Assembly: GCF_004402375.1 (NCBI RefSeq)
Contig: NZ_SOGJ01000023.1
Span: 1 to 64,000, forward strand
Direction of reading: 5' to 3'
DNA: 64,000 bases
Origin: Cryobacterium breve
Lineage (GTDB): Bacteria > Actinomycetota > Actinomycetes > Actinomycetales > Microbacteriaceae
Below, piece by piece: positions 28,066 to 60,982 of this stretch (position 1 is its first letter; each line of letters opens with the position of its first letter). Under the pieces are notes generated by a model. The model had not been told where the DNA came from and searched no databases. It saw only the letters and a list, made by a program, of their open reading frames with translations. A program made the translations under genes and the position numbers.

Positions 28066-28150
28066 AACGAATTCGACGGAGATTTTCCAATAAAAACGGG
28101 TTTTCAGGCTTTGCGGCCCGTGTTAGCCAAAAATCACCGTCGAGTTCGTT
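28066..28150. repeat. 85-bp intergenic inverted-repeat element, copy 1
   Basis: Left end AACGAATTCGACGGAGAT (28066-28083) pairs with the reverse complement of the right end (28133-28150); over 22 bp at each end only two positions differ. The 41-bp centre is A/T-richer than its surroundings and is not related to the other copies. Two further elements of identical length and the same ends occur at 41639 and 60898. No open frame is inside. Confidence 0.88.
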
Positions 28151-28297
28151 CGTGACTTGGGGCGGAACACACGCACCGGCTGACACGCAGACCTCGTCCG
28201 CCTCCGCCCACGTCGACCGGCGGGAACTGTCACTCCGTGTCGACTGGGGACGGCTTAACAGGCCCCGCCGACCGTGCGACAGTACCACCCGCCACAG

Positions 28298-28360
28298 CGC
28301 CGAGCCGTGAAGCCAGCTCCCAATTCTTCAAGAAAGTGGAACCGACCTCACGGCTCGGCG
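28298..28360. repeat. 63-bp inverted repeat near the fadB-like 3' end
   Basis: CGCCGAGCCGTGA (28298-28310) is the exact reverse complement of TCACGGCTCGGCG (28348-28360), with 37 bp between, and the spacer itself contains TTCTT-C-AAGAA (28324-28334). It begins 13 nt beyond the stop of the leftward fadB-like gene. No U-run follows, so it is not a standard terminator. Possible roles: mRNA 3'-end protection, a protein site, or a mobile-element scar. Confidence 0.7.
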
Positions 28361-28372
28361 TGGTGAATGCGG

Positions 28373-30553
28373 TCAGTCGCCTACTGTCGTGGCGGTCGTG
28401 TGTGCAACGGGCTCGGAGGCCGCGCCGACTCCGCGGATCGGCGGCGTGTGGAACGTGCCCTGGAAGACGCGTTCGCTTGCGCCGACGCGGTCCAGGTAGG
28501 GCGTGATCCCGCCCATCTGGAACGGCCAGTTGGCACCGAGAATCATGCACAAGTCGATGTCCTCGGCGGCGTGCACGACGCCGTCGTCCAGCATCCGCTT
28601 GATTTCATCGGCCAGGCCGTCTTCAACGCGGCGCAGGATCTGCTCGGCCGTCATCGGTTCCTGCCCGCCGGCGACGATCTTCACGGCGCCCTTGTCGAAG
28701 CCCTTGATCTTGCCCTTCGAATCGCGCTCGAGGATCGTGCCGTGCTCTGCCAGGCGGTGCAGATTCGGGCTGTCGAAGAACCGGTCCGGGAACGCCGCGT
28801 GGTGGGTGTCCAGCACGTGTGCACCGACCTTGAGGCCGACGAGTTCGAGAAGTTCGAACGGGGTCATCGGCATGCCGAACGGCGCGAGAGAACCGTCCAC
28901 CACCGCGAACGGCGTGCCGGTGTCGACCGCGTGCATGGCCTCGCCCAGCAGCTTGGCGAGGAGCCGGTTGACCACGAACCCGGGGGTGTCTCGGGTGATG
29001 ACGGCGTTCTTCCGCAGCTTAGCGGCCACAACCATGGCCGTGGATAGGGAGGTGTCGTTGGTCTGGGGGGTGTTCACGACTTCGATCAGCGGCATGATGG
29101 CCACCGGATTGAAGAAATGGAAACCGACCAGGCGCTCCGGGTGGGCCAGCTTGGCCCCGATCTGTTCGACCGACAGCGACGAGGTGTTGGTGGCGAGGAT
29201 GGCGTCGGGGGAAATGTGTTTCTCGATCTCGGCGAAGACATCCTGCTTCACGCCCAGCTCTTCGAAGACGGCCTCGATCACCCAATCGGCATCGGCGAAC
29301 TGTGCCTTGTCGGTGGTGCCTGTCACGAGGGCGCGCAGCCGGTTGGCCTCGTCGGGGGAGATGCGCTTCTTGGTCTCCAGAGCGAGGATCTCGCCGTGGA
29401 TGTAGGCGACACCCTTGTCGACGCGGGCCTGGTCGAGGTCGGTGATGACCACAGGCACGCGCAGGCGGCGCACGAAAAGCAGCGCGAACTGGCTGGCCAT
29501 CAGGCCGGCGCCGATGACGCCCACCTTCTTGATCGGCCGGGCGAGGGCCTTGTCCGGTGCTCCGGCTGGGCGTTTGGCTCGCTTCTGAACCAGATTGAAG
29601 GAGTAGATGCTCGCCTGTAGCTGATCGCCGGAGATGAGCTCGGCCAGGCAGTCGTCTTCCCGTTCGAAGCCTTCCTGCCGGGTGCCGCTCTTGGCCGCTT
29701 TGACCAGGTCCAGCGCGATGTACGGCGCCCGGGCGACGGTGCCGATGCGGCCTTCGAGCATCTTGCGGGCGATGCCGACGGCGACGTCCCACTTGACGAG
29801 ACGCTCGACCTTGCCAGGCAGGTTCGGCCTGGCGACCTTGATCTTTCCGGTGATCACGCCGTCTGCCCACGTGATGGACTGCTCGAGGAACATAGCCGAG
29901 TCGAACTGCACATCCGCGATGCCGAGCTCGAGGGCGTCGGCCGCTTTCAGCGTACGGTGCTTCAGCGGGTTCTCGATGATCACCTTGAGTGCGTTCTCGA
30001 TGCCGATCAGGTTGGGGAGCAGGTAGGAGGCACCCCAGCCTGGGATCAGCCCGAGGGAGACCTCGGGCAGCGCGATCGCCGGAACGGACGCGTCGACCGT
30101 GCGGTAGTCGGCGTTGAGGGCGATCTCGAGCCCGCCGCCGAGCGCGAGCCCGTTGATGAACACGAAGGAGGGCACGCCGAGCTCGGCCTGCTTGCCGAGG
30201 GCATAGTGGCCGAGCTGCGCGAGCAACTTACCTGTCTCGAGGGAGGGGATCTGGCTGACCTTGCTCAGGTCGGCACCGGCAGCGAGGATGAACGGCTTGC
30301 CGGTGACGGCGACGCCGTGGATGTCCCCGAGCGCGGCCCGCTCCCGAAGGAGGTCCATCGTCATGCCGAACTCGAGCAGGGTGATGGGCCCAAGCGTATT
30401 AGGGCGGGTGTGGTCCCGCCCGTTGTCCAGCGTGACGAGCGCCAGGGTACGGCCCCCGGACAACGGCACGTCGCGCACGAAAGAGTGTGTAACGACCTCG
30501 TCGGCCGACAGGTCGACCAGCGGAGTGAAATCGAGTGCTGAGTAGTCGGTCAT
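28373..30553 (-). CDS. fadB: 3-hydroxyacyl-CoA dehydrogenase / enoyl-CoA hydratase fusion
   Basis: 726 residues from ATG 30553. N-terminal crotonase domain (about 1-290): GVAVTGKPFILAAGADLSKV, then FINGLALGGGLEIALNADYR and ALPEVSLGLIPGWGASYLLP. Then the NAD-binding dehydrogenase with VGVIGAGLMASQFALLFVRR, NTSSLSVEQIGAKLAHPERL, VGFHFFNPVAIMPLIEVV (catalytic His) and TRDTPGFVVNRLLAKLLGEA, followed by the C-terminal dehydrogenase fold. It performs hydration and oxidation in fatty-acid beta-oxidation. Its start overlaps the thiolase stop by 4 nt, so thiolase and FadB are made from one operon, as in classic fadAB. Confidence 0.93.
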   Translation of the reverse strand: MTDYSALDFTPLVDLSADEVVTHSFVRDVPLSGGRTLALVTLDNGRDHTRPNTLGPITLLEFGMTMDLLRERAALGDIHGVAVTGKPFILAAGADLSKVSQIPSLETGKLLAQLGHYALGKQAELGVPSFVFINGLALGGGLEIALNADYRTVDASVPAIALPEVSLGLIPGWGASYLLPNLIGIENALKVIIENPLKHRTLKAADALELGIADVQFDSAMFLEQSITWADGVITGKIKVARPNLPGKVERLVKWDVAVGIARKMLEGRIGTVARAPYIALDLVKAAKSGTRQEGFEREDDCLAELISGDQLQASIYSFNLVQKRAKRPAGAPDKALARPIKKVGVIGAGLMASQFALLFVRRLRVPVVITDLDQARVDKGVAYIHGEILALETKKRISPDEANRLRALVTGTTDKAQFADADWVIEAVFEELGVKQDVFAEIEKHISPDAILATNTSSLSVEQIGAKLAHPERLVGFHFFNPVAIMPLIEVVNTPQTNDTSLSTAMVVAAKLRKNAVITRDTPGFVVNRLLAKLLGEAMHAVDTGTPFAVVDGSLAPFGMPMTPFELLELVGLKVGAHVLDTHHAAFPDRFFDSPNLHRLAEHGTILERDSKGKIKGFDKGAVKIVAGGQEPMTAEQILRRVEDGLADEIKRMLDDGVVHAAEDIDLCMILGANWPFQMGGITPYLDRVGASERVFQGTFHTPPIRGVGAASEPVAHTTATTVGD

Positions 30554-31755
30554 CGCTTGCTTGCCTTCCGGTTGAAGTGCGGGTTCTCCCAAATTACGGT
30601 GCCACCCTGGCCGAGGCCGATGCACATGGCGGTGAGGCCGTAGCGCACCTCGGGGTGCTCGCTGAACTGACGTGCGAGCTGGTTCATCAGGCGCACGCCG
30701 GAGGAGGCCAGCGGATGTCCGATGGCGATCGCACCGCCGTATTCGTTCACGCGAGGGTCGTCGTCGTCGATGCCGAAGTGATCCAGGAAGGAGATCACCT
30801 GCACCGCGAACGCCTCGTTGAGTTCGAACAGTCCGATATCTGTGATGCTGAGGCCCGCCTTGCGCAGCGCCTTTTCCGTAGAGGGGACAGGTCCGAGACC
30901 CATGACCTCCGGTTCGACGCCGGCGAAGGCGAAGCTGACCATCTTCATCTTGACGGTCAGTCCCAGTTCCTTGGCGGCCCCGCTGCTGGCGAGAAGGCAG
31001 GCGCTGGCACCATCGTTGAGCCCGGAGGCGTTGCCGGCCGTGACCCGCCCGAAGGGGCGGAACGGGGTCTTCAGGGAGGAGAGACCTTCCATCGTGGTCT
31101 CCGGTCGCGGAGCCTCGTCACGGGTCGCGAGACCCCAGCCGGACTCGCTGCGGATCGACACTGAGATGAGGTCGGGTTGGATCTTCTCGGCTGCATAGGC
31201 GGCGGCAACCTTTTCCTGGCTGCGCAGGGCGAACCGGTCGGAGCGCTCCTTGGTATAGGAAGGAAAGCGGTCGTGGATGCGCTCGGCGGTGGCACCCATG
31301 TTGAGGGCGTCCTCACTGACGAGGCGCTCGGAGAGGAATCGCGGGTTCGGGTCGACGCCGGATCCCATCGGGTGGCGGCCCATGTGCTCGACCCCACCCG
31401 CAATGGCCAGGTCGTAAGCGCCGAAGCCGATTCCCGCTCCGAGAGTGGTGACGGCGGTCATCGCGCCGGCGCACATCCGGTCGATGGCGAATCCTGGCAC
31501 CGACTTCGGCAGGCCGGAGAGGAGCGCCGCCGTGCGACCGAGGGTGAGACCCTGGTCACCGGTCTGGGTCGTGGCGGCAATCGCCACCTCATCGATCCGA
31601 TCCCCGGGAACCGAGGGGTTGCGTTCCAGCAGTCCGATCATGGCCTTGACCACCAGATCATCCGCCCGGGTGTTCCAGTACATTCCCTTTTCACCAGCGC
31701 GTCCGAACGGGGTGCGAACCCCGTCTACAAACACGACTTCTGCTCTATCGGCCAC
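30550..31755 (-). CDS. fadA: Acetyl-CoA acyltransferase (beta-oxidation thiolase)
   Basis: 401 residues. Nucleophile C95 lies in DRMCAGAMTAV; the second catalytic pair is in GGAIAIGHPLASSGVRLMNQ (His) and TAMCIGLGQGG (Cys). The N-terminal VVFVDGVRTPFGRAGEKGMY and NEAFAVQVISF complete the thiolase signature. It cleaves 3-ketoacyl-CoA with CoA in the last step of beta-oxidation. GTG start with GGAGG 6 nt upstream and a possible TAGGAT -10 about 35 nt before. Followed by fadB with a 4-nt overlap. Confidence 0.93.
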   Translation of the reverse strand: MADRAEVVFVDGVRTPFGRAGEKGMYWNTRADDLVVKAMIGLLERNPSVPGDRIDEVAIAATTQTGDQGLTLGRTAALLSGLPKSVPGFAIDRMCAGAMTAVTTLGAGIGFGAYDLAIAGGVEHMGRHPMGSGVDPNPRFLSERLVSEDALNMGATAERIHDRFPSYTKERSDRFALRSQEKVAAAYAAEKIQPDLISVSIRSESGWGLATRDEAPRPETTMEGLSSLKTPFRPFGRVTAGNASGLNDGASACLLASSGAAKELGLTVKMKMVSFAFAGVEPEVMGLGPVPSTEKALRKAGLSITDIGLFELNEAFAVQVISFLDHFGIDDDDPRVNEYGGAIAIGHPLASSGVRLMNQLARQFSEHPEVRYGLTAMCIGLGQGGTVIWENPHFNRKASKR

Positions 31756-31831
31756 TTTGCCTCCATCAATCGATCAGGTGTCGGTCGATCCTAAAGGGGC
31801 ACCCGGGGAGGGTCGAATCGTTGGACGGTTC

Positions 31832-33028
31832 CTACGAACTGGTTTGCGGGGAGACCTCGTTCGTTTGCAGGACATCCACAAAGGCATCGGCAATCCGTTG
31901 TGCGGTCGCTTCAATCTGCCAGGTGCGTGCGCCCAGATGGGCGAGCGCCTCTCCAACGGATGCGGGGTCGACGGTCTCCGGCGGCGTCCACGCCACCCGC
32001 CGCACGTAATCGGGCGTAACGAGGTTTTCCAGTGGGATGGCGAGTGCCTCGGAAACCTCCGTCAGCGCGGCGCGAGCGGCCTTATAGCGCAGGTCCGCTT
32101 CCGGATTGCGATCTGACCAGGCGCGCGGGGGAGGGAGCAGGTCGCCGCTGGCGCGCAGCGAGGGCAAATCGCTCGATGCCTGCCCCTTCTGAACAGCGCC
32201 CCACCAGCGGTCGAGCTCGGTGCGGCTCGCTCGCCCGCTGAACTCGCGCAGCTCGGCCAGCGCCTGCCGGGACGCGGGCATGGCCCGTGCGGCCGCGGTC
32301 AGGGACGCATCGGGAACGAGTCGGCCGGGGGAGACATCGAGGTCCTGAGCCAGCCTGTCGCGGGCCAGCCAAAGCTCCCGTGCGACTGCGAGGCCACGCT
32401 GGCTACGGATGGAGTGCACGCCGGAGAGGCGACGCCAGGGTTCGGGGCCGACGGGTTTGGCCTCCCGGGCCAGTACCGCGGCGAATTCCTGGGCGGCGAT
32501 GTCGCTTTTGGAATCGGTGGCGAGCATGTCGGCCATCCGGTCTCGAAGGTCAGGGAGCAGCTCGACGTCGAGTGCGCCGTACACGAGCCAAGCCTCCGGT
32601 AGAGGCCGGGTAGACCAGTTCGCGGCGGAGTGCTCTTTGGCCAAGTGGATGCCCAGGAGCTCCTCCACCACAGTGCCGAGGCCCACCCGGGGGATGCCGA
32701 GCAGACGGGCAGCTAATTCCGTGTCGAAGATGTGCTTGGGATCCAGGCCCACTTCACGTAGGCAGGCCAAGTCCTGGCTGGCGGCGTGAAAGATCCACTC
32801 GACGTCGTGGAGCGCCTCATTGAGTTCGTGGAACTCTCCGATCGCGGGCGGGTCGAAGAGGAAGGTGCCCGCGTCCCGCCGATAGATCTGGATCAGATAG
32901 GCGCGCTGCGAGTAGGTGAAGCCGGATGCCCGTTCCGCATCGATACCGACCGGGCCCGTACCGGCGCTGATGGCGGCCGTTGCTGCCAGGTAGGCGTGCC
33001 GGGTATCGATTACCTGGTGATCAAGCAC
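31832..33028 (-). CDS. rnd: Ribonuclease D (3'-5' exonuclease with HRDC domain)
   Basis: 398 residues from GTG 33028. DEDD exonuclease sites: VGIDAERASGFTYSQRAYLI (D-x-E), EWIFHAASQDLACLREVGLD, IFDTELAARLLG and YGALDVELLPDLRDRM. The HRDC domain is near residues 215-290 (RGLAVARELWLARDRLAQDL). RNase D trims tRNA and other stable RNA 3' ends. The start is chosen because the upstream reading frame duplicates DUF3000 coding sequence; from GTG 33028 the overlap with the DUF3000 stop is 8 nt. The DUF3000-RNase D pair is conserved in actinobacteria. Confidence 0.9.
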   Translation of the reverse strand: MLDHQVIDTRHAYLAATAAISAGTGPVGIDAERASGFTYSQRAYLIQIYRRDAGTFLFDPPAIGEFHELNEALHDVEWIFHAASQDLACLREVGLDPKHIFDTELAARLLGIPRVGLGTVVEELLGIHLAKEHSAANWSTRPLPEAWLVYGALDVELLPDLRDRMADMLATDSKSDIAAQEFAAVLAREAKPVGPEPWRRLSGVHSIRSQRGLAVARELWLARDRLAQDLDVSPGRLVPDASLTAAARAMPASRQALAELREFSGRASRTELDRWWGAVQKGQASSDLPSLRASGDLLPPPRAWSDRNPEADLRYKAARAALTEVSEALAIPLENLVTPDYVRRVAWTPPETVDPASVGEALAHLGARTWQIEATAQRIADAFVDVLQTNEVSPQTSS

Positions 33029-33611
33029 GACCGGTGCGGCGTGTGGACAACATGCTGACTCCTTCGCCAGTGGGTGGAAGGCCTGCGAGCATGCAGAGCA
33101 GCTCGCCCCATCCTTCGACGTGGGCGGCGAGATTATGGTCCAGCGGCGTCCACGAGGCACGCAGTTCTATTTGCGCACCATCGCCCTGCCTGGCAAGTTC
33201 GCCGAAGCCTGACGAGATGATCTTAGTCGCGGTGCCTGAGGCCGCGGTATATCGTGCCCCATGGGAGTCGAGGGCATCGACCAGCCACGACCAGGCGACT
33301 CCGGCGACGAACGGGTCCAGCCCGATGTCGGTTTCGAGCGGAGCCTGCGCGAAACAGACGACGCGAAACGCACCGCCCCACTCTTCGGGTTCGTCCGGAT
33401 CGTGGAGCAGAATGAAACGACCGGTCCCCAAGTCGGAGTTGCCGCCATGACGAGTCGGATTGATATCGGCGGAGAAGGCGACGGCGTTCGGGGCGATGCT
33501 CGCCGGGGCGGAAATCTCGTTCACCACGAGCTCCGCGCGGATGCGTGCACCCTCGATGGATGCGCGGGCGGCGGTGAACTCCGGAGGGGGCTGGTGTTGT
33601 GTTTCGGGCAC
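33021..33611 (-). CDS. DUF3000 family protein
   Basis: 196 residues. Family marks: PPEFTAARASIEGARIRAEL, then ISAPASIAPNAVAFSADIN, GRFILLHDPDEPEEWGGAFR, VCFAQAPLETDIGLDPFVAG and VAWSWLVDAL. GTG start at 33611 is exactly 6 nt after TAGTCT on the same strand, so the mRNA is probably leaderless. Overlaps RNase D by 8 nt. Conserved across actinobacteria next to RNase D; function unknown, though a link to RNA processing is suggested by the pairing. Confidence 0.9.
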   Translation of the reverse strand: MPETQHQPPPEFTAARASIEGARIRAELVVNEISAPASIAPNAVAFSADINPTRHGGNSDLGTGRFILLHDPDEPEEWGGAFRVVCFAQAPLETDIGLDPFVAGVAWSWLVDALDSHGARYTAASGTATKIISSGFGELARQGDGAQIELRASWTPLDHNLAAHVEGWGELLCMLAGLPPTGEGVSMLSTRRTGRA

Positions 33612-33627
33612 GTCTGCAGACTAGAGT
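33612..33627. promoter_or_regulatory. Back-to-back overlapping -10 elements
   Basis: Leftward TAGTCT (minus strand, 33623 to 33618) for DUF3000 and rightward TAGAGT (33622-33627) for the hydrolase share two base pairs. RNA polymerase could occupy only one at a time, so the two divergent transcripts are probably mutually exclusive at the moment of initiation. The hydrolase leader is then about 40 nt; DUF3000 is leaderless. Confidence 0.5.
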
Positions 33628-33674
33628 TTTTTCCGTGCAGTGTCGCTCAGGCACGCCGGACAGGGAAGGTAGTC

Positions 33675-34907
33675 ATGCGCGACGGAATGGGTTCAGGGCG
33701 GCACCCAGGGCGAATTGTGGCTGTGACCGGGATCGCTGTTGCGGGGACGGCGGTGGCGCTCGGAATCGCTGGCGGTGTTCTCGCGACCGTGATGGCCCGC
33801 CGGATCGTGACTCCCGGGGGCCGGCGCACCGACGATGTGCGTGTCAAGGGCGTCGACCTGGTGGCGGGAACGATCACGCTGGCGTGCACGGCGGACTCCG
33901 TTCTGCAGGGTGACTACAGTTTCTGGTTCTCCCAGGACCGGGGGCACGCGCACCTGGGCGAGGTCCTGCGCCTGACGCCGACCCGAGTGACACGGCGCAT
34001 CCTTCGTGTGGATCACGGAGATCTGGCTCTGGCCGAGCGCGGCCGTCTCGGCGGTTACTCTTATCTGGGTCCCTGGGACCTTGGCCTTGCCTTCGAGGAC
34101 GTGCTTGTTCCGACCGACGTCGGTGCAGCGCCGGCCTGGTTGGTACCGGCGGAGGAACCGGACGGGCGCTGGGTGCTTCAGGTGCACGGGCGGGGCGTGC
34201 AGCGGCAGGAGACCCTGCGGGCGACTCCGGTCTTCCGGGACGCGGGTTTCACGTCCCTGCTGGTGTCCTATCGCAACGACGGGGAAGCTCCCATGAGCGG
34301 CGGCGGACGGTACGCCCTCGGAGACGCGGAGTGGCTGGATGTCGACGCTGCCATCGCGTTCGCCGTTGCCCGCGGCGCGACCGAGATTGTGCTGATGGGC
34401 TGGTCGATGGGCGGGGCCATTGTGCTGCAGACGGCGACTCGGTCCATGCTTCGTGACCGGATCGTCGGAATCGTGCTCGACTCGCCCGTGCTCGATTGGG
34501 CGGACGTCGCGAAGTTCCACGGCGGACTGCTCGGCCTGCCCGCGGTCGTCGCCAGGGGCGCTCTGGAAGTGTTGGGCCGGCGGTGGGGCGGGATCTTCAC
34601 CGGCCGGACCGAACCGATCGACTTCGGACGCCTCGACTTCGTCACGCGCGCCGCCGAGCTCGAGCTGCCGGTGCTGTTGATGCACAGCGACGACGACGGC
34701 TTCGTGCCCGCGACCGGCTCACGCGCCCTGGCCGGGCGCCGCCCCGATATTGTGACCTTTCTACCGTTCGCGGTGGCGCGGCACACCAAATTGTGGAACT
34801 ACGATCGCGAAGGCTGGAACCAGGCCATCACGAACTGGCTGGACGAGATCGCTCCCACCGGGCGAACACCGCACCCTGATCGTCCAGTAGCAGCTGCCGC
34901 AGACTGA
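33675..34907 (+). CDS. Membrane-anchored alpha/beta hydrolase
   Basis: 410 residues from ATG 33675, with GGAAGGT before it. One N-terminal helix (RIVAVTGIAVAGTAVALGIA) anchors or exports the protein. The hydrolase fold begins near residue 155: RWVLQVHGRGVQRQETLRAT, then the nucleophile elbow GWSMGG (Ser about 243), the acid in LMHSDDDGFVP and the histidine in VARHTKLWNYDREG. This is the dienelactone/BAAT-type peptidase-like group of actinobacteria. Substrate unknown. The last 80 bp overlap the convergent reductase gene. Confidence 0.85.
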   Translation: MRDGMGSGRHPGRIVAVTGIAVAGTAVALGIAGGVLATVMARRIVTPGGRRTDDVRVKGVDLVAGTITLACTADSVLQGDYSFWFSQDRGHAHLGEVLRLTPTRVTRRILRVDHGDLALAERGRLGGYSYLGPWDLGLAFEDVLVPTDVGAAPAWLVPAEEPDGRWVLQVHGRGVQRQETLRATPVFRDAGFTSLLVSYRNDGEAPMSGGGRYALGDAEWLDVDAAIAFAVARGATEIVLMGWSMGGAIVLQTATRSMLRDRIVGIVLDSPVLDWADVAKFHGGLLGLPAVVARGALEVLGRRWGGIFTGRTEPIDFGRLDFVTRAAELELPVLLMHSDDDGFVPATGSRALAGRRPDIVTFLPFAVARHTKLWNYDREGWNQAITNWLDEIAPTGRTPHPDRPVAAAAD

Positions 34908-36038: not shown

Positions 36039-36098
36039 CACCGACCATTCTGCCATGCGCGGGCCGAGCGAGCCCAGAAACCCAGTGGGCCGGCCGAC

Positions 36099-37001: not shown

Positions 37002-37180
37002 AGGGGAATCCTCCTGGGAGCGTGCAATGGACACCGGATCAAATGTACGCGGTTTAGGCTGTTTACCGGCCCGCTTTTCGAATCTACGCGGTCTTGGTCC
37101 TGATCGCATCCGCGGTCGTTATTCAGCGATGATGCGCCGCGGGTGGCCAGCGTCCGACACAGAAAACCGGGTATTTCAGC

Positions 37181-41638: not shown

Positions 41639-41723
41639 AACTAATTCGACGGAGATCCAACCCGGAGCGGCGCGTGACCGGACGAAAAATCGGTTGTGGA
41701 CCGGCATCTCCGTCGAATTGGTT
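41639..41723. repeat. 85-bp intergenic inverted-repeat element, copy 2
   Basis: Left end AACTAATTCGACGGAGAT (41639-41656); right end (41706-41723) is its reverse complement with one difference. Ends extend one more base as GAAC...GTTC. Centre is G/C-rich and unrelated to copies 1 and 3, yet the total length is the same. It starts 9 nt after the flotillin stop. Confidence 0.9.
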
Positions 41724-45117: not shown

Positions 45118-45190
45118 TGGGCGATACCGGACTCGAACCGATGACCTCTTCCGTGTGAAGGAAGCGCGCTACCAACTGCGCCAATCGCCC
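45118..45190 (-). tRNA. tRNA-Val (anticodon CAC)
   Basis: 73 nt including discriminator A; no CCA encoded. Acceptor GGGCGAT/ATCGCCC, T-loop GTTCGAGTC, and anticodon loop TTCACAC between CTTCC and GGAAG. Reads GUG. It is a different isoacceptor from the GAC copies on the other strand, with near-identical arms. Confidence 0.95.
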
Positions 45191-45284
45191 ATGTGGCCAG
45201 AGCTGCAACCACGAGTTCTGATACTAGTCGAGAGCCGGCGAATGGCGCACATCGAGAGCCTGCAACACGCCGTCGTTGCCCGGT

Positions 45285-45314
45285 TTGAATATGCACCGGA
45301 GTATCCGCTAGAGT
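45285..45314 (+). promoter_or_regulatory. Promoter of tRNA operon copy 1
   Basis: TTGAAT (45285-45290), 18-bp spacer, TAGAGT (45309-45314), 28 nt before tRNA-Gly. The second operon copy has the same TAGAGTCTT at 45770-45778 but a poor -35, so copy 2 may be weaker. Confidence 0.65.
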
Positions 45315-45342
45315 CTTCAAGCGCGCAGAGATGTGTGCAGTT

Positions 45343-45414
45343 GCGGATGTGGCGCAGTGGTAGCGCATCACCTTGCCAAGGTGAGGGTCGCGAGTTCGAA
45401 TCTCGTCATCCGCT
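45343..45414 (+). tRNA. tRNA-Gly (anticodon GCC), copy 1
   Basis: 72 nt with discriminator U. Acceptor GCGGATG/CATCCGC; anticodon loop TTGCCAA between CACCT-like stems; T-loop GTTCGAATC. First gene of the copy 1 operon. Confidence 0.96.
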
Positions 45415-45464
45415 CGAAATTGAATCGGCCGAAAGGCCGGTTCTTTTTGGTACGAATCCCAAGT

Positions 45465-45535
45465 GGTGGGTTGGCCGAGAGGCGAGGCAACGGCCTGCAA
45501 AGCCGTGTACACGGGTTCGAATCCCGTATCCACCT
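45465..45535 (+). tRNA. tRNA-Cys (anticodon GCA), copy 1
   Basis: 71 nt, discriminator U followed by an encoded CCA (45536-45538). Anticodon loop CTGCAAA between ACGGC and GCCGT. The acceptor has one G-U pair (GGTGGGT/ATCCACC) that is a full Watson-Crick pair in copy 2. Confidence 0.95.
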
Positions 45536-45564
45536 CCATTCCAGGAAAGCAATTTTCAGGAAAT

Positions 45565-45636
45565 GGGCGATTGGCGCAGCGGTAGCGCGCTTCCCTGACA
45601 CGGAAGAGGTCACTGGTTCGATCCCAGTATCGCCCA
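45565..45636 (+). tRNA. tRNA-Val (anticodon GAC), copy 1
   Basis: 72 nt with discriminator A. Acceptor GGGCGAT/ATCGCCC; anticodon loop CTGACAC between CTTCC and GGAAG. Reads GUC/GUU. Last gene before the terminator. Confidence 0.96.
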
Positions 45637-45642
45637 CAGATG

Positions 45643-45668
45643 AACCCCCGGTAATTCGGGGGTTTTTC
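45643..45668 (+). terminator. Terminator of tRNA operon copy 1
   Basis: AACCCCCG-GTAATT-CGGGGGTT followed by TTT. Identical to the one closing copy 2. Confidence 0.93.
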
Positions 45669-45805
45669 TTTGCCCGCGGAGGGCGGGATTTGCCGGCGCA
45701 GAGGGGCGTTTCTCGGTGTTGGCCCGACGAATCGCTACTCCCGGTGCGGTGAGGCCGTCCGGAATCGGCTAGAGTCTTTCAAGTCAGCAATAACGCTGAC
45801 GAAGT

Positions 45806-45877
45806 GCGGATGTGGCGCAGTGGTAGCGCATCACCTTGCCAAGGTGAGGGTCGCGAGTTCGAATCTCGTCATCCGCT
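45806..45877 (+). tRNA. tRNA-Gly (anticodon GCC), copy 2
   Basis: 72 nt, identical to copy 1. Second operon, first gene. Confidence 0.96.
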
Positions 45878-45927
45878 CGAAATTGAATCGGCCGAAAGGC
45901 CGGTTCTTTTTGGTACGAATCCCAAGT

Positions 45928-45998
45928 GGTGGGTTGGCCGAGAGGCGAGGCAACGGCCTGCAAAGCCGTGTACACGGGTTCGAATCCCGTACCCACCT
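45928..45998 (+). tRNA. tRNA-Cys (anticodon GCA), copy 2
   Basis: 71 nt plus encoded CCA (45999-46001). Differs from copy 1 by one base in the acceptor arm, giving a perfect GGTGGGT/ACCCACC stem. Most bacteria have a single tRNA-Cys gene, so two adjacent copies are notable. Confidence 0.95.
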
Positions 45999-46027
45999 CC
46001 ACTCCAGGAAATTAATTTTCAGGAAAT

Positions 46028-46099
46028 GGGCGATTGGCGCAGCGGTAGCGCGCTTCCCTGACACGGAAGAGGTCACTGGTTCGATCCCAGTATCGCCCA
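46028..46099 (+). tRNA. tRNA-Val (anticodon GAC), copy 2
   Basis: 72 nt, identical to copy 1. Confidence 0.96.
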
Positions 46100-49037: not shown

Positions 49038-49038
49038 G

Positions 49039-51171: not shown

Positions 51172-51180
51172 GCTCCGGTG

Positions 51181-52636: not shown

Positions 52637-52640
52637 GGCG

Positions 52641-53243: not shown

Positions 53244-53863
53244 TTGCTTCCGTACGTGGCCTTGTCCTGTCTGCCATTGGTTCCGTGGCCGTGATCGAGG
53301 TCGGGGGAGTCGGTCTGGCCGTGCAGGTCACCCCATCGACCGCGCTGTCCCTCCGCGTTGGCACCGAGACTCTGCTCTCCACCACCCTGATCGTGCGCGA
53401 GGACTCGCTAACGCTCTACGGTTTCCCGGCCGCCGACGAACTCGAGGTCTTCGAACTACTCGTCGGCGTCACCGGAGTCGGGCCCAAATCCGCCCTCGGA
53501 GTGCTCGCGGTGCTCAGTCCTAGCCAAATCGCCCAAGCCGTTTCGTCCGAAGACGACGGTGCTTTCCGCAAGGTGAGCGGCATTGGCCCCAAGACCGCGA
53601 AACTCATCGTGCTGTCCCTCGCCGGCAAGGTGTTCGTCACGACCACGGCTGCGGCAGCCACCCGCCCTGCCCCCACGAGCGCCTCGGCAAACGTGCAGGC
53701 GGCCCTGATCGGTCTCGGGTGGTCCGAGAAGGTGGCGGCCCAGGCCGTCGACGAGACCCTTGCCGAGTCGAACGAACCGGAACTGATCGGTGTGGCCGCC
53801 CTCCTCCGCCTCGTGCTCTCCAGACTCGGACCGGCGCAGCAGGCATCGGAGCGCCGCGCGTGA
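53240..53863 (+). CDS. ruvA: Holliday junction branch migration protein RuvA
   Basis: 207 residues. Domain I OB-fold: [20 protein letters not shown]-like start, [20 protein letters not shown]. Domain II two HhH motifs: [20 protein letters not shown] and [20 protein letters not shown]. Domain III ([20 protein letters not shown]) contacts RuvB. Tetramer that recognises the four-way junction. GTGA overlap with ruvC and with ruvB. Confidence 0.95.
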
Positions 53864-54927: not shown

Positions 54928-54964
54928 TTCGAGTTGGTTCGCCTAGAACCATCCGTGCGGGTTC
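54923..54964 (+). promoter_or_regulatory. yajC-secDF promoter and structured leader
   Basis: TATAAT (54923-54928) is a perfect -10 that overlaps the ruvB stop codon; the -35 region is poor. The predicted RNA starts near 54935. GGTTC (54936-54940) can pair with GAACC (54946-54950), and that same GAACC can instead pair with a second GGTTC (54960-54964), so two hairpins exclude each other in a ~90-nt leader. Confidence 0.5.
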
Positions 54965-55026
54965 CTCCGGGACCTGTGCGCACAGACTTCGGCCCTCGTG
55001 CCGCTACCGAAAGGTTTCACAGTTTT

Positions 55027-55413
55027 ATGGATCCGTTGACTCTTGTCATGCTTGCCGTTCTCGCGGCGCTCGTGTTCTTCATGTTCCGCAATAGCCGCAA
55101 GCGCCAGAAGGACCAGGCTGCCCTGCAGTCCCAGATGGTTGCCGGTGCCGACGTCATGACCAACTTCGGCCTGTACGGAACGATCGTATCCATCGACGAA
55201 GAAGCGAACAAGGTCGCCCTGGAGATCGCCCCTGGCACCGTCGTCGAGCTGCACCGCCAGACCATCGCCCGGGTGGTCGAGCCGATCCTGGTCGAGCCTC
55301 ACGACGAGTCCGTTGCCGAACTGAACCAGGACAGCGCAGCCGTCATGGGTGAGCCGGACTTCGGCCAGCGCGTTGCAGACACCGACGAAGAGCCCAAAAA
55401 GGGCGACGCATAA
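55027..55413 (+). CDS. yajC: Preprotein translocase subunit YajC
   Basis: 128 residues. One membrane helix (LVMLAVLAALVFFMFRN), then the YajC domain: RKRQKDQAALQSQMVAGADV, then MTNFGLYGTIVSIDEEANKV and GTVVELHRQTIARVVEP. The C-terminal ~35 residues are an acidic tail. Associates with SecD-SecF. Ribosome site GAAAGG is 13 nt before the ATG, rather far. An intense hairpin separates it from secD. Confidence 0.93.
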   Translation: MDPLTLVMLAVLAALVFFMFRNSRKRQKDQAALQSQMVAGADVMTNFGLYGTIVSIDEEANKVALEIAPGTVVELHRQTIARVVEPILVEPHDESVAELNQDSAAVMGEPDFGQRVADTDEEPKKGDA

Positions 55414-55425
55414 CCAATCCCTCTC

Positions 55426-55451
55426 CATGCCCGCGCCTCGGCGCGGGCATG
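55426..55451. other. Perfect 12-bp hairpin between yajC and secD
   Basis: CATGCCCGCGCC (55426-55437) and GGCGCGGGCATG (55440-55451) pair perfectly around TC. No U-run follows, so it is not a standard terminator; a GAGCATGAGCAT repeat follows directly and the secD GTG is 30 nt downstream. Could set the secD/yajC ratio by RNA processing or control secD translation. Confidence 0.8.
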
Positions 55452-55480
55452 AGCATGAGCATAGAAAGCTGAGTTCTCTG

Positions 55481-57217
55481 GTGGCAAAGTCGTCCCCGGC
55501 CAAGAAGGCCTGGCGTTCCCTCACGTGGCTGGGTGTGATCATCGCCGGACTGATCGCACTCAACACGGCCGGTGTTCTCACCGGAGGCGGATCCTGGACC
55601 CCCAAACTGGCCCTCGACCTCGAGGGTGGCACGCAGATCATCCTCGCGCCCAAGCTCGAATCCGGGCAGTCCGTCTCCTCGGAACAGCTGAACGAAGCCG
55701 TGAAGATCATCCGGCAGCGCATCGACTCGGCCGGTGTCTCCGAAGCGGAGATCAACACCCAGGGCGGCCAGAATATCGTCGTATCCATCCCCGGCGTGCC
55801 AGACGACGCCACCATCAACAGGATCGAGTCCTCGGCCAAGCTGGAGTTCCGTCCGGTCCTCGTCGCCGGAGCGCCCTCCGCCGCCGCCGTGGGTGAGGAC
55901 ATCGTCGGAGAAGATGGTGTTGCTACGCCCGCTCCGACGCCGACCGTCGACCCCAGCCTGGTGAGCACCCCCACCGCGGTGCCCACCGACGGGAGCGACC
56001 TGAACTGGATCACCCCCGCTCTCCAGGCCCAGTACGAGGCCTTCGACTGCAGCAAGATCGACTCGACCAATGTGGCTCCGGCCGCCGAGCCGCTGATCAC
56101 GTGCGAGGCCGACGGATCGATCAAGTACATCCTCGGACCCGTGGAAGCCAGTGGCGAGAATGTCTCCGACGCCACCAACGGCCAGCGGACCACTCAGAGC
56201 GGCGCCACCACTGGTGAATGGGTCGTCAACATCGTCTTCGACAGCACCGGGACCAAGGACTTCGCCACGGTCAGCACACGACTGAGCGGACTCACCGGGG
56301 CTCAGAACCAGTTTGCAATCGTTTTGGACGGCAACGTCATCTCCGCGCCGCGCACGCTGGCCGTCATCACCGACGGCAACGCGCAGATCAGTGGCAACTT
56401 CGACCAGGATTCCTCCAAGGCACTCGCCGACCAGCTCAAGTTCGGCGCCCTGCCGCTCAGCTTCACGGTGCAGAGCCAGGACACCATCTCGGCCACCCTG
56501 GGTTCGAGCCAACTCACCGGCGGCCTGATCGCCGGATTGATCGGCCTCATCCTGGTCGTGATCTACTCGCTCATCCAGTACCGCCTGCTTGGGCTCGTCA
56601 CGGTCGCGTCCCTCACCGTAGCCGCCGTCATCACCTACCTCTTGATCACGATCCTGTCGTGGCGGGAGGGATATCGCCTGTCGCTCGCCGGCGTCGCCGG
56701 CCTGATCGTCGCGATCGGCATCACCGCAGACTCCTTCATCGTCTACTTCGAGCGAGTGCGTGACGAACTCCGTGACGGCCGCGGACTCGAGTCCTCGGTG
56801 GAAGCCGGGTGGAAGCGTGCCCTGCGAACCATCCTCGCGTCCGACGCGGTGAACATCCTCGCGGCGGGAGTCCTGTTCATCGTCGCCGTCGGCAACGTGA
56901 AGGGCTTCGCCCTCACTCTGGGGCTCACCACCCTGGTCGACGTGCTCGTGGTCATGCTCTTCACCCACCCGATGCTCCAGCTGCTCGCGCGCACCAAATT
57001 CTTCAGCGAGGGCCACAAGTTCAGCGGGCTCGACCCGCGTGCACTGGGCGCCGCCTACCGCGGCCGGGCCACTTTCAAGCCGGCGCCGGGCGCACCGACC
57101 GCCAAGCTGTCATCGGCCAGCCGCGAGGCAGCCAAACGTCAGACCATCGCCGAACGCAAAGCGGCGGAACTCGTGGGTTCCAGCACGGATCGATCGACCG
57201 ATGGGAAGGAATCCTAA
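55481..57217 (+). CDS. secD: Protein translocase subunit SecD
   Basis: 578 residues from GTG 55481. First helix LGVIIAGLIALNTAGVLTGG; D1 signature LALDLEGGTQIILAPKL; periplasmic P1 domain with IRQRIDSAGVSEAEINTQGG and a Pro/Thr-rich insert (residues ~150-180); then five helices from GLIAGLIGLILVVIYSLIQY, including VAGLIVAIGITADSFIVYFE (D4/D5, essential Asp) and ERVRDELRDG. Uses proton motive force to help pull proteins through SecYEG. Stop overlaps the secF start by 1 nt (TAATG). Confidence 0.95.
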   Translation: MAKSSPAKKAWRSLTWLGVIIAGLIALNTAGVLTGGGSWTPKLALDLEGGTQIILAPKLESGQSVSSEQLNEAVKIIRQRIDSAGVSEAEINTQGGQNIVVSIPGVPDDATINRIESSAKLEFRPVLVAGAPSAAAVGEDIVGEDGVATPAPTPTVDPSLVSTPTAVPTDGSDLNWITPALQAQYEAFDCSKIDSTNVAPAAEPLITCEADGSIKYILGPVEASGENVSDATNGQRTTQSGATTGEWVVNIVFDSTGTKDFATVSTRLSGLTGAQNQFAIVLDGNVISAPRTLAVITDGNAQISGNFDQDSSKALADQLKFGALPLSFTVQSQDTISATLGSSQLTGGLIAGLIGLILVVIYSLIQYRLLGLVTVASLTVAAVITYLLITILSWREGYRLSLAGVAGLIVAIGITADSFIVYFERVRDELRDGRGLESSVEAGWKRALRTILASDAVNILAAGVLFIVAVGNVKGFALTLGLTTLVDVLVVMLFTHPMLQLLARTKFFSEGHKFSGLDPRALGAAYRGRATFKPAPGAPTAKLSSASREAAKRQTIAERKAAELVGSSTDRSTDGKES

Positions 57218-58230
57218 TGGCCAGTTTCGCTCAGTTCGGAAACGATCTACACACCGGTAAGCGGTCATTCGACATCGTCGGCCGACGCAAGACCTGGTAC
57301 CTGGTCGCCGTGGTTGCGCTCCTCGTTGCCATCGTGGTACCCCAGTTGCGTGGCGGCTTCGTCTTCGGCATCGAGTTCACTGGCGGATCCGAGTTCAAAA
57401 TCTCTCAAGTCGCCGAACAGGATCAGGCAGCGGGCGCCGACGCCGTGACGGAGGTCGTTCCGCAGGCTGCGCCGCGGGTGTCGAGCGTCAGCTCCACGGG
57501 TATCCGCGTGCAGACCGACCAGCTCACCAGCGGCGAGACCCGTGAGGTTCGCGCCGCTCTAGCGGATGCCTACGCCGTGCCGGTCGAGCAGGTCACGGCC
57601 TCTTTCATCGGCCCGAGCTGGGGCCAGGACATCACCGGTCAGGCCGTGCGCGGACTCATCATCTTCCTCGTGCTCGCCGCTATCGGCATGGCGCTGTACT
57701 TCCGCACCTGGAAGATGTCACTCGCGGCAATGACGGCGTTGATGCACGACCTCGTCATCACCGCGGGGATCTACGGCATCACTGGATTCGAGATCACCCC
57801 GGCGGCCGTGATCGGATTCCTCACCATCCTCGGCTACTCGCTCTACGACACGGTCGTGGTGTTCGACAAAATCCGTGAGAACACGTCCGAAGCAGGTTCG
57901 GAGACGCGCATGTTCGGCGAATCGGTGAACCTGGCTGTGAACCAGACCCTGGTGCGCTCGATCAACACCTCGGTTGTCGCTGTGTTGCCGGTCGCGTCGA
58001 TCCTCTTCATCGGGACGCTCGTGCTCGGCGCGGGAACCCTGCGGGATATCTCGCTGGCCCTCCTGATCGGAATCATCGCGGGTGCCTACTCGACAATCTT
58101 CATCGCTTCACCGCTCTACGCTCAGATTCGCTCCGCGGAGCCGGACGTGCGCAAGGCCGACCAGAAGGTCCTCGCCCAGCGGGCGAAGGCCGGCTCGGCG
58201 TCGAAGGTGGCTGAGGAAGTCAGCGCCTAA
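57217..58230 (+). CDS. secF: Protein translocase subunit SecF
   Basis: 337 residues. First helix TWYLVAVVALLVAIVVPQLR; FGIEFTGGSEFKI signature; P1-like domain; five C-terminal helices with TALMHDLVITAGIYGITGFE, AAVIGFLTILGYSLYDTVVV followed by FDKIREN, and RSINTSVVAVLPVASILFIG. Partner of SecD. GGAAGG precedes the ATG. In mycobacteria apt follows before rel; here rel comes directly, 88 nt later. Confidence 0.95.
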   Translation: MASFAQFGNDLHTGKRSFDIVGRRKTWYLVAVVALLVAIVVPQLRGGFVFGIEFTGGSEFKISQVAEQDQAAGADAVTEVVPQAAPRVSSVSSTGIRVQTDQLTSGETREVRAALADAYAVPVEQVTASFIGPSWGQDITGQAVRGLIIFLVLAAIGMALYFRTWKMSLAAMTALMHDLVITAGIYGITGFEITPAAVIGFLTILGYSLYDTVVVFDKIRENTSEAGSETRMFGESVNLAVNQTLVRSINTSVVAVLPVASILFIGTLVLGAGTLRDISLALLIGIIAGAYSTIFIASPLYAQIRSAEPDVRKADQKVLAQRAKAGSASKVAEEVSA

Positions 58231-58318
58231 CGGCGCGAGTCGGAGTCTGCCCGGGGCGACGTGGTAGGGATGTTGCCCGGGAGCAGTGATAATTGATCAA
58301 ACGGATGGAGGTGGCCAG

Positions 58319-60592
58319 GTGACCGAGCTGACAACGCCGCCTGCCTCCCCGGCTCCGCTCCCGCCCGCGTCACTGCGGCGCCTGGTGCCCCGGATATTCT
58401 CCCGGGCCCAGCCGGTCGGCGCGGTTGACACCCTGCTGAAAACCGTTCGGACGCACCACCCCAAGGTGGACCTCTCCGTCATCGAGCGTGCGTACGCCGT
58501 CGCCGAACAGGCGCATGAGGGGCAGTTCCGGCGCAGCGGCGAGCCGTACATCACGCATCCGGTCGCGGTCGCCCAGATTCTGGCCGACCTGGGCATCGGG
58601 CCGAAGACCGTATCCGCCGCTCTGCTGCACGACACTGTCGAGGACACCGAGTACACCCTCGACCAGCTCCGCAGCGACTTCGGTGACGAGATCACCATGC
58701 TTGTCGACGGCGTGACCAAACTCGACAAGGTCAAGTACGGCGATAGCACCCAGGCCGAGACCGTGCGCAAGATGATCGTGGCGATGTCCAAGGACATCCG
58801 CGTACTGATCATCAAGCTCGCTGACCGCCTGCACAATGCGCGCACCTGGGGTTTTGTGCCAGCCGAGTCGGCCGTGCGCAAGGCAACCGAGACACTGGAA
58901 ATTTACGCCCCGCTCGCGCACCGGCTCGGTATCCAGACCATCAAGTGGGAACTCGAAGACCTGTCCTTCGCGGTGCTGTATCCGAAGCTCTACGCCGAGA
59001 TCGACAGCCTTGTCAAGCAGCGCACGCCGCAGCGAGAAGAATTCGTGCAGCACGTCATCGACGCGATCGTCGACGACTTGAAGGCCGCGCGCATCCGGGG
59101 CAAGGTGGCCGGCCGGCCCAAGCAGTACTACTCGATCTATCAGAAGATGGTCGTTCGCGGCCGCGACTTCGACGAGATCTACGACCTGGTCGGCATCCGC
59201 GTGCTCGTCAACTCGGTTCGTGACTGTTACGCGGTGCTCGGCGCGATCCATGCCCGTTGGACTCCCCTGCCCGGCCGGTTCAAGGACTACATCGCAACCC
59301 CCAAGTTCAACCTCTACCAGTCCCTGCACACCACTGTTCTCGGCCCGAGTGGCCGCGCGGTCGAGATTCAGATCCGCACGCAGGAGATGCACCAGCGTGC
59401 AGAGTTCGGCGTGGCATCGCACTGGAAGTACAAGGAGCAGACCACCGGTAAGAGCGCCGGTCCCGGCCCACAGAGTGACACCGACATGGCGTGGCTCGCG
59501 CACATCTCCGACTGGCAGGCCGAAACGGCCGATCCGGGGGAGTTCCTCGACTCCCTCCGCTACGAGATCGGTGCCAAAGAGGTCTACGTCTTCACGCCCA
59601 AGGGGCGTGTTATCGGCCTCCCGGCCGACGCCACTCCGGTGGACTTCGCCTATGCCGTGCACACCGAGGTCGGTCATCGAACGATGGGTGCCAAGGTCAA
59701 CGGGCGCTTGGTGCCGCTGGAGAGCCCCTTGCTCACCGGAGACGTCGTCGAGGTCTTCACCTCGAAGAACCCCGACTCTGGACCCAGCAAAGACTGGCTG
59801 AACTTCGTCAAGAGCCCTCGGGCTCGCAACAAGATCCGGCAGTGGTTCACCAAGGAACGCCGAGACGAGGCGATCGAGCAGGGCCGTGATGCCATCGCCC
59901 GCGCCATGCGCAAGCAGAACCTGCCGCTGCAGAAGCTGATGAACCAGGACTCCTTCGCCGAGGTCGCCGCGGTGATGAAGTACGAAGATGTCTCCGCGCT
60001 GTACGCTGCCGTCGGCGAGGGCCACGTGTCCACGCAGTCCGTCCTGGAGAAAGTCGTCGCCACCCTGCAGAGCGTTGAGGAAAGCGACGCCACCGATTTG
60101 CCGTTCGCACCTCACGGTCGAACGCAGACACTCCGGAACAGCGACTCCGGCATCCTCGTGCGCGGTGCGCCCGACATTCTGGTGAAGCTCGCACGCTGCT
60201 GCACACCCGTTCCAGGCGACAAGGTTGTGGGGTTCATCACGCGCGGGGCCGGTGTCTCCGTCCACCAGGCATCCTGCCGTAACGTGCAGTCACTGCTGAA
60301 GGAACCCGAACGCATGATCGAGGTCGACTGGGCGCCCACGTCCAAGAGTCTGTTCCTGGTTCAGATTCAGATCGAAGCTCTCGACCGTTCCGGGCTGCTC
60401 TCCGACGTCACGCGCGTTCTGTCTGAGCACCACGTCAATATCCTGTCGGCGACCGTGCACACCTCCACCGACCGCCTGGCGATCAGCCGGTTCGTCTTCG
60501 AGATGGGGGACACCACCCACCTCGACCGTGTGCTCAACGCCGTGCGCCGGATCGACGCCGTGTACGACGTGTATCGCGTCAACGACGGCTGA
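58319..60592 (+). CDS. rel: Bifunctional (p)ppGpp synthetase/hydrolase Rel
   Basis: 757 residues from GTG 58319, chosen because GGAGGTGG lies 6 nt upstream; GTG 58286 is an in-frame alternative. HD hydrolase with LLHDTVEDTEYT (His104-Asp109); synthetase with GRPKQYYSIYQKMVVRGRDF then DEIYDLVGIRVLV, and RFKDYIATPKFNLYQSLHTT; TGS (KEVYVFTPKGRVIGLPADAT); zinc-finger-like LARCCTPVPGDKVVGFITRG; ACT domain (VQIQIEALDRSGLLSDVTRV). Sole RelA/SpoT homologue type of actinobacteria, making and degrading (p)ppGpp on starved ribosomes. Likely transcribed with or after secDF. Confidence 0.95.
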   Translation: MTELTTPPASPAPLPPASLRRLVPRIFSRAQPVGAVDTLLKTVRTHHPKVDLSVIERAYAVAEQAHEGQFRRSGEPYITHPVAVAQILADLGIGPKTVSAALLHDTVEDTEYTLDQLRSDFGDEITMLVDGVTKLDKVKYGDSTQAETVRKMIVAMSKDIRVLIIKLADRLHNARTWGFVPAESAVRKATETLEIYAPLAHRLGIQTIKWELEDLSFAVLYPKLYAEIDSLVKQRTPQREEFVQHVIDAIVDDLKAARIRGKVAGRPKQYYSIYQKMVVRGRDFDEIYDLVGIRVLVNSVRDCYAVLGAIHARWTPLPGRFKDYIATPKFNLYQSLHTTVLGPSGRAVEIQIRTQEMHQRAEFGVASHWKYKEQTTGKSAGPGPQSDTDMAWLAHISDWQAETADPGEFLDSLRYEIGAKEVYVFTPKGRVIGLPADATPVDFAYAVHTEVGHRTMGAKVNGRLVPLESPLLTGDVVEVFTSKNPDSGPSKDWLNFVKSPRARNKIRQWFTKERRDEAIEQGRDAIARAMRKQNLPLQKLMNQDSFAEVAAVMKYEDVSALYAAVGEGHVSTQSVLEKVVATLQSVEESDATDLPFAPHGRTQTLRNSDSGILVRGAPDILVKLARCCTPVPGDKVVGFITRGAGVSVHQASCRNVQSLLKEPERMIEVDWAPTSKSLFLVQIQIEALDRSGLLSDVTRVLSEHHVNILSATVHTSTDRLAISRFVFEMGDTTHLDRVLNAVRRIDAVYDVYRVNDG

Positions 60593-60645
60593 TTCTCCAG
60601 CGGGCTGAGGCTGTGGTGTCCGGCGGCGGACAGCCGTGCCCGGCC

Positions 60646-60724
60646 GCTCTCTGCTGCTCTCCGCTTTCTGCATTCCGCTGCTCTCCGCTGCTCTATGCCT
60701 TCTGCTTTCTGTTGCTCTCGCTTG
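60646..60724. repeat. Pyrimidine-rich imperfect tandem tract
   Basis: About 78 bp of C/T/G with almost no A. GCTGCTCTCCGCT occurs twice and CTTTCTG/CTTCTG units recur. On the opposite strand it reads as purine-rich low-complexity Glu/Arg/Gln codons, but no supported gene uses it. Could form an H-DNA-like or unstructured single strand in rel 3' RNA. Confidence 0.6.
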
Positions 60725-60725
60725 A

Positions 60726-60832
60726 GTGGCCAATTCAGGAGATTCGACGAACGGGTGGCTTCGATACCGGGAGCGGGCGCGGAACCAGTACGGATGCGTG
60801 GCGTGGCTGCTGGGATCTCCTGAGTTGGCCAC
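60726..60832. repeat. 107-bp inverted repeat with 18-bp ends
   Basis: GTGGCCAATTCAGGAGAT (60726-60743) is the reverse complement of ATCTCCTGAGTTGGCCAC (60815-60832) with one difference; 71 bp lie between. Its ends share an AATTC...GGAGAT core with the 85-bp elements but the order of bases differs, so it may be a related or separate family. Only one copy is in the window. Confidence 0.75.
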
Positions 60833-60897
60833 AGCACCCGGCGGCTGCGCCGCATCATTCGGAGCGGGCGCTGACCACGCGGCCGCCCGACGCGCCG

Positions 60898-60982
60898 AAC
60901 GAATTCGACGGAGACTTCACCCAAACGGCCCGGAGTTCAGCGGAAACCTCAACTTTTTCTCAGAATCTCCGTCGAATTAGTT
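60898..60982. repeat. 85-bp intergenic inverted-repeat element, copy 3
   Basis: Left end AACGAATTCGACGGAGA (60898-60914); right end (60966-60982) is its reverse complement with one difference. Exactly 85 bp, as in copies 1 and 2, with an unrelated centre that contains ACTTTTTCT. Ends extend one more base as GAAC...GTTC. It lies 34 nt past the 3' end of the leftward AbiEi-like gene. Confidence 0.9.

What the first reader, a model, noticed from the sequence alone, without database searches (positions are those of the whole stretch)
28066..60982. Three 85-bp palindromic intergenic elements with conserved ends and unrelated centres
Elements at 28066-28150, 41639-41723 and 60898-60982 are each exactly 85 bp. 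All have inverted ends of the form AACKAATTCGACGGAGA (17-22 bp, one or two differences between arms). The 40-50 bp centres do not align. All three lie just past gene 3' ends (dxs/fadB, flotillin, rel/AbiEi-like). Constant length with a variable core is odd for simple decay of one MITE. It suggests selection on arm spacing, for example RNA folding, a protein that bridges the arms, or a transposed hairpin whose centre is replaced. Such a family is not one I recognise.
Basis: seen in the sequence. Interest (0 to 1): 0.72.

Follow-up and report, generated by a model that had tools for sequence, protein, structure and literature searches.

The report
Fixed-length palindromic repeats between bacterial genes
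The three 85-base elements belong to a large family of short palindromic DNA repeats, up to 131 per genome in Cryobacterium with relatives in other Microbacteriaceae, whose ends and end-to-end distance stay nearly constant while the middle drifts, which suggests that an unknown protein grips both ends.

Summary
The three elements are real and exactly 85 bp. They belong to a genome-wide family: 76 exact-arm copies in this Cryobacterium genome, up to 131 in congeners. Of 66 own-genome arm pairs 64 span 84-86 bp; the other two are second pairings of counted elements. 'Unrelated centres' fails: once oriented, centres share a weak consensus. Four things stand. Arms hardly change at orthologous sites while centres drift. 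Length is held. Central A/T runs are spaced 10 bp with one phase. The core CGGAGAT-N49-ATCTCCG, with other outer arms, recurs in other Microbacteriaceae genera; of 396 phylum genomes none outside the family has more than 2 matches. No target duplication, RAYT or Rfam family. Copies lie mostly past gene 3' ends: 77 convergent, 72 tandem, 15 divergent of 164. Closest known kind: REPIN, but without RAYT and with other ends. Best reading: an old mobile palindrome family kept in place as a two-arm protein-binding site with fixed arm spacing. The protein was not found; A/T phasing may be inherited. New variant of a known kind.

The parts
28066..28150 (.). 85-bp element 1 (right-arm core carries two changes); left-arm core CGGAGAT at 28077-28083
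41639..41723 (.).
60898..60982 (.). 85-bp element 3, between the convergent genes 58286-60592 (rel-like by eye) and 61016-61618 (AbiEi-like)
28066..28087 (+). left arm of element 1, AACGAATTCGACGGAGATTTTC
60898..60919 (+). left arm of element 3
60961..60982 (-). right arm of element 3

Best explanation
A REPIN-like, probably once mobile, palindromic repeat family whose resident copies are kept as DNA sites. SHOWN: arm sequence is nearly invariant in place while the centre drifts; arm spacing is held to about 1 bp in the own genome; the centre carries A/T blocks at about 5, 15 and 25 bp on either side of the dyad; copies lie mostly past gene 3' ends; the core CGGAGAT/ATCTCCG and its spacing are found in other Microbacteriaceae genera with different outer arms. 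INFERRED: a dimeric or oligomeric protein grips the two arms, which lie about 64 bp or six helical turns apart and so on one face of the helix; the bent centre is looped or wrapped between them; the complex acts as a boundary (transcription roadblock or supercoil/nucleoid anchor) at the ends of transcription units.
For: Length: of 61 own-genome elements 54 are 85, 6 are 86 and 1 is 84 bp; all 13 fetched elements of another genus have one inner length, 63 bp, where 59-67 was allowed. Arms: over 34 orthologous pairs (equal length, centre identity at least 0.55), substitution at positions 6-14 is 0.00-0.01 per site against 0.16-0.51 at centre positions 23-43. Phasing: period 10.0 bp, power 1.24 against 0.25 for shuffled centres, phase coherence 0.957 over 53 elements, flat in the flanks; 2.40 against 0.24 in G175. 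Predicted bend 42-58 degrees against 21-24 for shuffled centres. Context. No centre base-pair covariation. Core, spacing and paired outer arms in other genera.
Against: No binding protein was found. Phasing is weak in the GACACGCCG subtype (0.32 against 0.18, G211), so wrapping is not general. Selection on A/T class is not proven: with doubtful orientations removed (109 of 178 kept), A columns drift to T (.094) no more than to G (.136) or C (.093), so the phasing may be inherited. Orthologous pairs were drawn largely from loci fetched by spacing and kept only at 84-87 bp, so 51 of 57 with equal length is partly by construction. Arm pairs show some covariation above shuffles, which a hairpin would also give.
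Confidence: 0.45

Rival explanations
1. A purely selfish REPIN-like element: an unidentified transposase moves the palindrome in trans, and fixed arm spacing is a requirement of transposition only.
For: Copy number swings from 0 to 131 between congeners; profile-model counts are bimodal, 21 of 57 genomes with 11 or more and 36 of 57 with 0-4 (at most 75 candidates scored per genome); lineage-specific outer arms and several subtypes per genome; close near-identical copies.
Against: Resident copies at orthologous sites keep their arms while their centres drift, which a dead copy would not do; no convincing TSD; no Y1 transposase family in the genome.
Confidence: 0.3
2. An RNA element: a 22-bp stem at mRNA 3' ends acting as terminator or stabiliser in both directions.
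For: Near stops, rich between convergent genes; at two sites that lack the element in a relative, a GC-rich hairpin stands in its place, by eye (L220, L166); arm pairs covary above shuffles (8 of 22 pairs changed on both sides against 4.5; score .063 against .048, 0 of 500 shuffles; related rows); other subtypes pair through the centre (G175 -50.9 against -44.2, sd 5.0, n=13; GACACGCCG type -51.9 against -42.2, sd 11.0, 22 stretches).
Against: Needs neither a 41-nt loop of fixed length nor 10-bp phasing; in the window's subtype the centre adds little to folding (-38.4 against -36.3, sd 6.5, 60 of 178); no orientation bias to tandem genes (35 against 37); no Rfam match at threshold.
Confidence: 0.2
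3. DNA gyrase loading sites (BIME-like).
For: Located where positive supercoils gather; phased GC/AT as in the E. coli gyrase motif (PMC6379681, passages).
Against: That motif is periodic at 10.75 bp in wings -63..-17 and +20..+66 and is called degenerate; here phasing is central, 10.0 bp, and absent outside the 85 bp, and the arms are nearly invariant.
Confidence: 0.05

Closest known systems
REPIN / REP doublets (PMC3116915 and PMC8049555; passages seen)
   Same: Two inverted conserved ends, preferred spacing (next-neighbour peaks at 71 and 110 bp in SBW25), diverse spacer, many extragenic copies.
   Different: No RAYT (PF01797) in the genome; no GTAG end; almost single length; partly alignable centre with helically phased A/T; seen here only in Microbacteriaceae.
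GTAG- and CGTC-tagged REPs (PMC3733652; part 1 of 8 read, and passages)
   Same: Palindromic, between tandem and convergent genes; CGTC families apparently lack a dedicated transposase.
   Different: REPs are 20-40 bp with an unpaired tag at one end; here CGTC lies inside the paired arm and the unit is 85 bp; the word Actinobacteria does not occur in that paper's main text.
REP / palindromic units as targets of IS3-family IS1397 (PMC1525189; passages seen)
   Same: An IS with an rve transposase sits inside these elements: 3 of 3 copies in G000.
   Different: Target is an 85-bp actinobacterial element.
MITEs (general)
   Same: Short, no coding capacity, inverted ends.
   Different: No convincing target duplication, no parent IS seen, length held.
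LrpC / RemA DNA wrapping (PMC8481266; passages seen)
   Same: Works-like analogy: oligomers proposed to wrap DNA.
   Different: RemA family (PF04025) absent from this genome; Lrp family not tested.

Membership tests
REPIN | two inverted copies of a conserved end around a variable spacer | tested here: met
REPIN | cognate RAYT (Y1 transposase) in the genome | tested here: not met
   PF01797: 0 matches in G000; control rings in 5 of 14 genomes
REPIN | GTAG at the palindrome end | tested here: not met
   consensus ends CCCG-AACG and GGTT-CG
REPIN | duplication within genomes | tested here: inconclusive
   near-identical centres on one contig, L178 0.93 and L172 0.88; could be segmental
MITE of a DDE transposon | target-site duplication | tested here: not met
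   2-11 bp tested over many boundary offsets, 178 elements; largest excess is 2 bp.213 against .151 shuffled
MITE of a DDE transposon | parent IS with the same ends | tested here: inconclusive
   8 unpaired arm matches seen in the fetched loci, none looked like an IS end; not every arm of the genome was fetched
gyrase site (E. coli motif) | 10.75-bp periodic wings 17-66 bp from the dyad | tested here: not met
   flank A/T flat
structured RNA of Rfam 15 | score over the curated threshold | tested here: not met
   window: only tRNAs; 7 relatives' loci: two hits far below threshold
DNA-wrapping site | protein-bound in vivo | not testable with these tools
   needs ChIP or pull-down

The most novel reading that the evidence does not exclude
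A Microbacteriaceae-wide class of sequence-specified nucleoprotein sites: a lineage-adapting protein grips the CGGAGAT arms exactly 63-64 bp apart (outer edge to outer edge) and loops or wraps the bent DNA between them, forming regularly built boundary complexes at the ends of transcription units, with outer arms that change from genus to genus together with the protein.
Probability: 0.27. Interest if true: 0.82.

Novelty: new variant of a known kind. Interest (0 to 1): 0.6.

Why it matters
REPIN-like palindromes of near-constant length are known with a partner transposase; here the known partner is absent, the core recurs across genera, and arm conservation in resident copies points to a function. 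It gives a testable case of what keeps such repeats in bacterial genomes, and a DNA bait for finding an unknown DNA-binding protein.

Tried and rejected
RAYT-driven REPIN: Y1 transposase absent. Classic MITE: no convincing TSD. RNA fold of the centre: no covariation in 54 unoriented or 178 oriented elements. Insertion inside a terminator stem: flanks are no more complementary than random pairs (-21.5 against -21.7 own, -24.3 against -24.7 other). attC/CRISPR-like replaced centres: rejected because centres are weakly homologous and orthologous centres diverge gradually. AbiEi_4/MTES_1575-like gene as partner: L398 has elements on both sides of one, but a search of the loci held then found only three such proteins. 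A looser core pattern (CGGAG..CTCCG) was useless: control near the signal in most genomes. The A/T-class retention test by column is confounded by ancestry and is not used as proof. Apparent A/T mixing in A/T columns came partly from wrong orientations. Empty-site reading across species was blurred by fast intergenic change. Element 1 of the window is not in the 178-element statistics because its right arm has two changes; elements of 84, 86 and 87 bp were also left out there (197 seen, 178 of 85 bp).

Full report
The observation. The three elements are at the stated places and each is exactly 85 bp with inverted ends. The window is G000:C31:1-64000. The own genome has 94+92 arm matches with at most one mismatch, control 0, and 76 full elements with exact 8-bp inner arms. 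Own loci were fetched by arm matches, or by arm pairs allowed to span 58-88 bp. Of 66 arm pairs found there 64 span 84-86 bp; the other two (73 and 98 bp, L083 and L099) overlap elements already counted. By a second arm rule (12-mer, up to 2 mismatches) I saw 61 elements: 54 of 85, 6 of 86 and 1 of 84 bp; a 62nd row at 106 bp is a second pairing. Eight arm matches stayed unpaired; two of them are elements split by an insertion sequence.

Centres. Treated without orientation they look unrelated. But the arms are not quite symmetric: one end is mostly CCCG-AACG, the other GTCG/GCCG-AACC. An EM orientation from the 41 central bases alone agrees with the arm orientation in 86 of 107 elements (77 of 89 with a clear score), and yields one weak consensus, mean identity 0.56. 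Random pairs in best orientation are 0.43 identical against 0.36 when letters are shuffled within A/T and G/C classes. So the centres most likely descend from one sequence and have drifted far.

In-place evolution. Among the fetched loci, 57 orthologous pairs carry an element at the same site, flanks 70-96% identical; centres are 0.27-0.95 identical. In the 34 equal-length pairs with at least 0.55 centre identity, positions 6-14 of the arms differ in 0.00-0.01 of cases and centre positions 23-43 in 0.16-0.51. Pairs share species and are not independent. Element length is equal in 51 and differs by 1 in 6 of 57, while the spacer outside the element changed its net length in 56 of 57. This length result is conditional, since both members had to be 84-87 bp and named loci were fetched by a spacing pattern. 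One pair of 57 (L002/L159) has its centre inverted between the arms (0.93 in reverse, 0.54 direct).

DNA shape. In 53 own elements the A/T fraction of the centre oscillates at 10.0 bp with phase coherence 0.957 and five times the power of shuffled centres; the flanks to 150 bp are flat. A/T blocks lie about 5, 15 and 25 bp from the dyad. Another genus (G175) gives 13 of 13 fetched elements of one length and ten times the shuffled power; G051 1.06 against 0.24, G313 0.66 against 0.23, G211 0.32 against 0.18. A wedge model with recalled parameters predicts 42 degrees (57 own, 121 other) and 58 degrees (13 of G175) of bend against 21-24 for shuffled centres. Whether selection keeps the phasing is open: once doubtful orientations are dropped (109 of 178 kept), consensus-A columns drift to T .094, G .136, C .093.

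RNA structure. In the centre there is no covariation in 54 unoriented or 178 oriented elements. In the arms of the 70-sequence alignment 7 of 22 pairs never vary; 8 have a change on both sides against 4.5 in shuffles, so some pairing signal exists. In this subtype the centre adds little folding energy; in G175 and in the GACACGCCG subtype, also present in this genome (C27:78783 and C27:80095), it does.

Context. With my own codon-usage gene caller, of 178 elements 77 are convergent, 72 tandem, 15 divergent, 11 at locus edges and 3 inside calls; the window's intergenic gaps of 85 bp or more are 18 tandem, 7 divergent, 6 convergent. Median distance to a flanking stop is 45 bp; orientation to tandem genes 35 same, 37 opposite. 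At the flotillin site an exact-arm element was seen in G000 and G012 only, of 30 loci scanned for 420 bp past the aligned gene end, which in some does not reach past the gene; G008 has a GC-rich hairpin there. A second site shows a similar swap (L166). Two cases, read by eye, are only a hint.

Spread. Exact-arm pairs occur in 39 of 149 relatives; counts above 2 only in the genus. A profile model finds 11 or more in 21 of 57 congeners and 0-4 in 36 of 57; at most 75 candidates were scored per genome. Best hits in the low group revealed other outer arms around the same core. The pattern CGGAGAT-N45..53-ATCTCCG has matches in 85 of 299 family genomes, reversed control 0; ten genomes, of eight genera, have 8 or more. 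Of the 30 best loci, 11 have outer arms paired for 5 or more bases in a row, ten of them from other genera; most of the rest look like chance matches. In 396 phylum genomes none outside the family has more than 2 matches, taken as chance and not examined one by one. In the genus 36 of 57 have at least one exact core pair. The genus-level viral pattern gave 0 contigs; a looser one gave 4 without matching outer arms. No plasmid match.

Mobility. No convincing target duplication, no Y1 transposase. An IS with two ORFs, the second with an rve domain, IS3-like by recalled anatomy, gave 39 matches in 17 of 57 congeners. In 28 loci I could read its junction, and 8 lie in an element: 3 of 3 in G000, 2 of 3 in G012, 1 of 1 in G034, 2 of 2 read in G005 (6 present). 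In G000 and G012 four of five break the element after base 44, the dyad, and one after base 34; in G034 and G005 the break is after base 63-64. In other genomes, the element-bearing G052 and G003 included, the junctions read are elsewhere. IS3-family IS1397 is known to target E. coli REPs (PMC1525189, passages).

Known kinds. REPINs are the nearest: two inverted REPs, diverse spacer, next-neighbour peaks at 71 and 110 bp (PMC3116915, passages; PMC8049555, passages). Tag, partner transposase and narrow length differ. Searches for print: Cryobacterium+palindromic+intergenic 0 papers; Microbacteriaceae+palindromic+repeats+intergenic 2, unrelated by title, not opened; Actinobacteria/REP/MITE terms 13, 10 listed; cggagat+palindrom 136, 10 listed. 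None of the listed titles describes this family.

Judgement. Shown: the family, near-constant length, arms conserved in place, a phased centre, gene-end placement, a core shared across genera. Inferred: a protein on both arms, looping or wrapping, a boundary role. I put 0.45 on this, 0.3 on a purely selfish element, 0.2 on an RNA role, 0.05 on gyrase.

Noticed in passing
G000:C31:611326, C22:1, C21:93728 (L279, L296, L305); G012, G034, G005: A two-ORF, rve-domain insertion sequence sits inside the elements in 8 of 28 junctions read: after base 44 (the dyad) in 4 of 5 cases in G000 and G012, after base 63-64 in G034 and G005.
   Followed up: partly
L002:1497-1581 against L159:1766-1850: At one orthologous site the centre is inverted between the arms (0.93 identity in reverse).
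   Followed up: partly
G000:C27:78783 and C27:80095 (L397): A second subtype (CGCGACACGCCG centre) in the window's genome, two copies 1.3 kb apart with one called gene of unknown family between them; the subtype also occurs in other genera.
   Followed up: partly
L398:2395-3858 (G051): A gene with sub-threshold AbiEi_4 and MTES_1575 Pfam hits, flanked on both sides by GACACGCCG-type elements.
   Followed up: partly
L220 and L166: A GC-rich hairpin stands where relatives have the 85-bp element (read by eye).
   Followed up: partly
window 45118-46099: Seven tRNA genes, with a block of three tRNAs repeated about 463 bp apart.
   Followed up: no
window 61016-61618 (-): AbiEi C-terminal-like protein just under the Pfam cut-off, next to element 3; a toxin partner was not looked for.
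   Followed up: no
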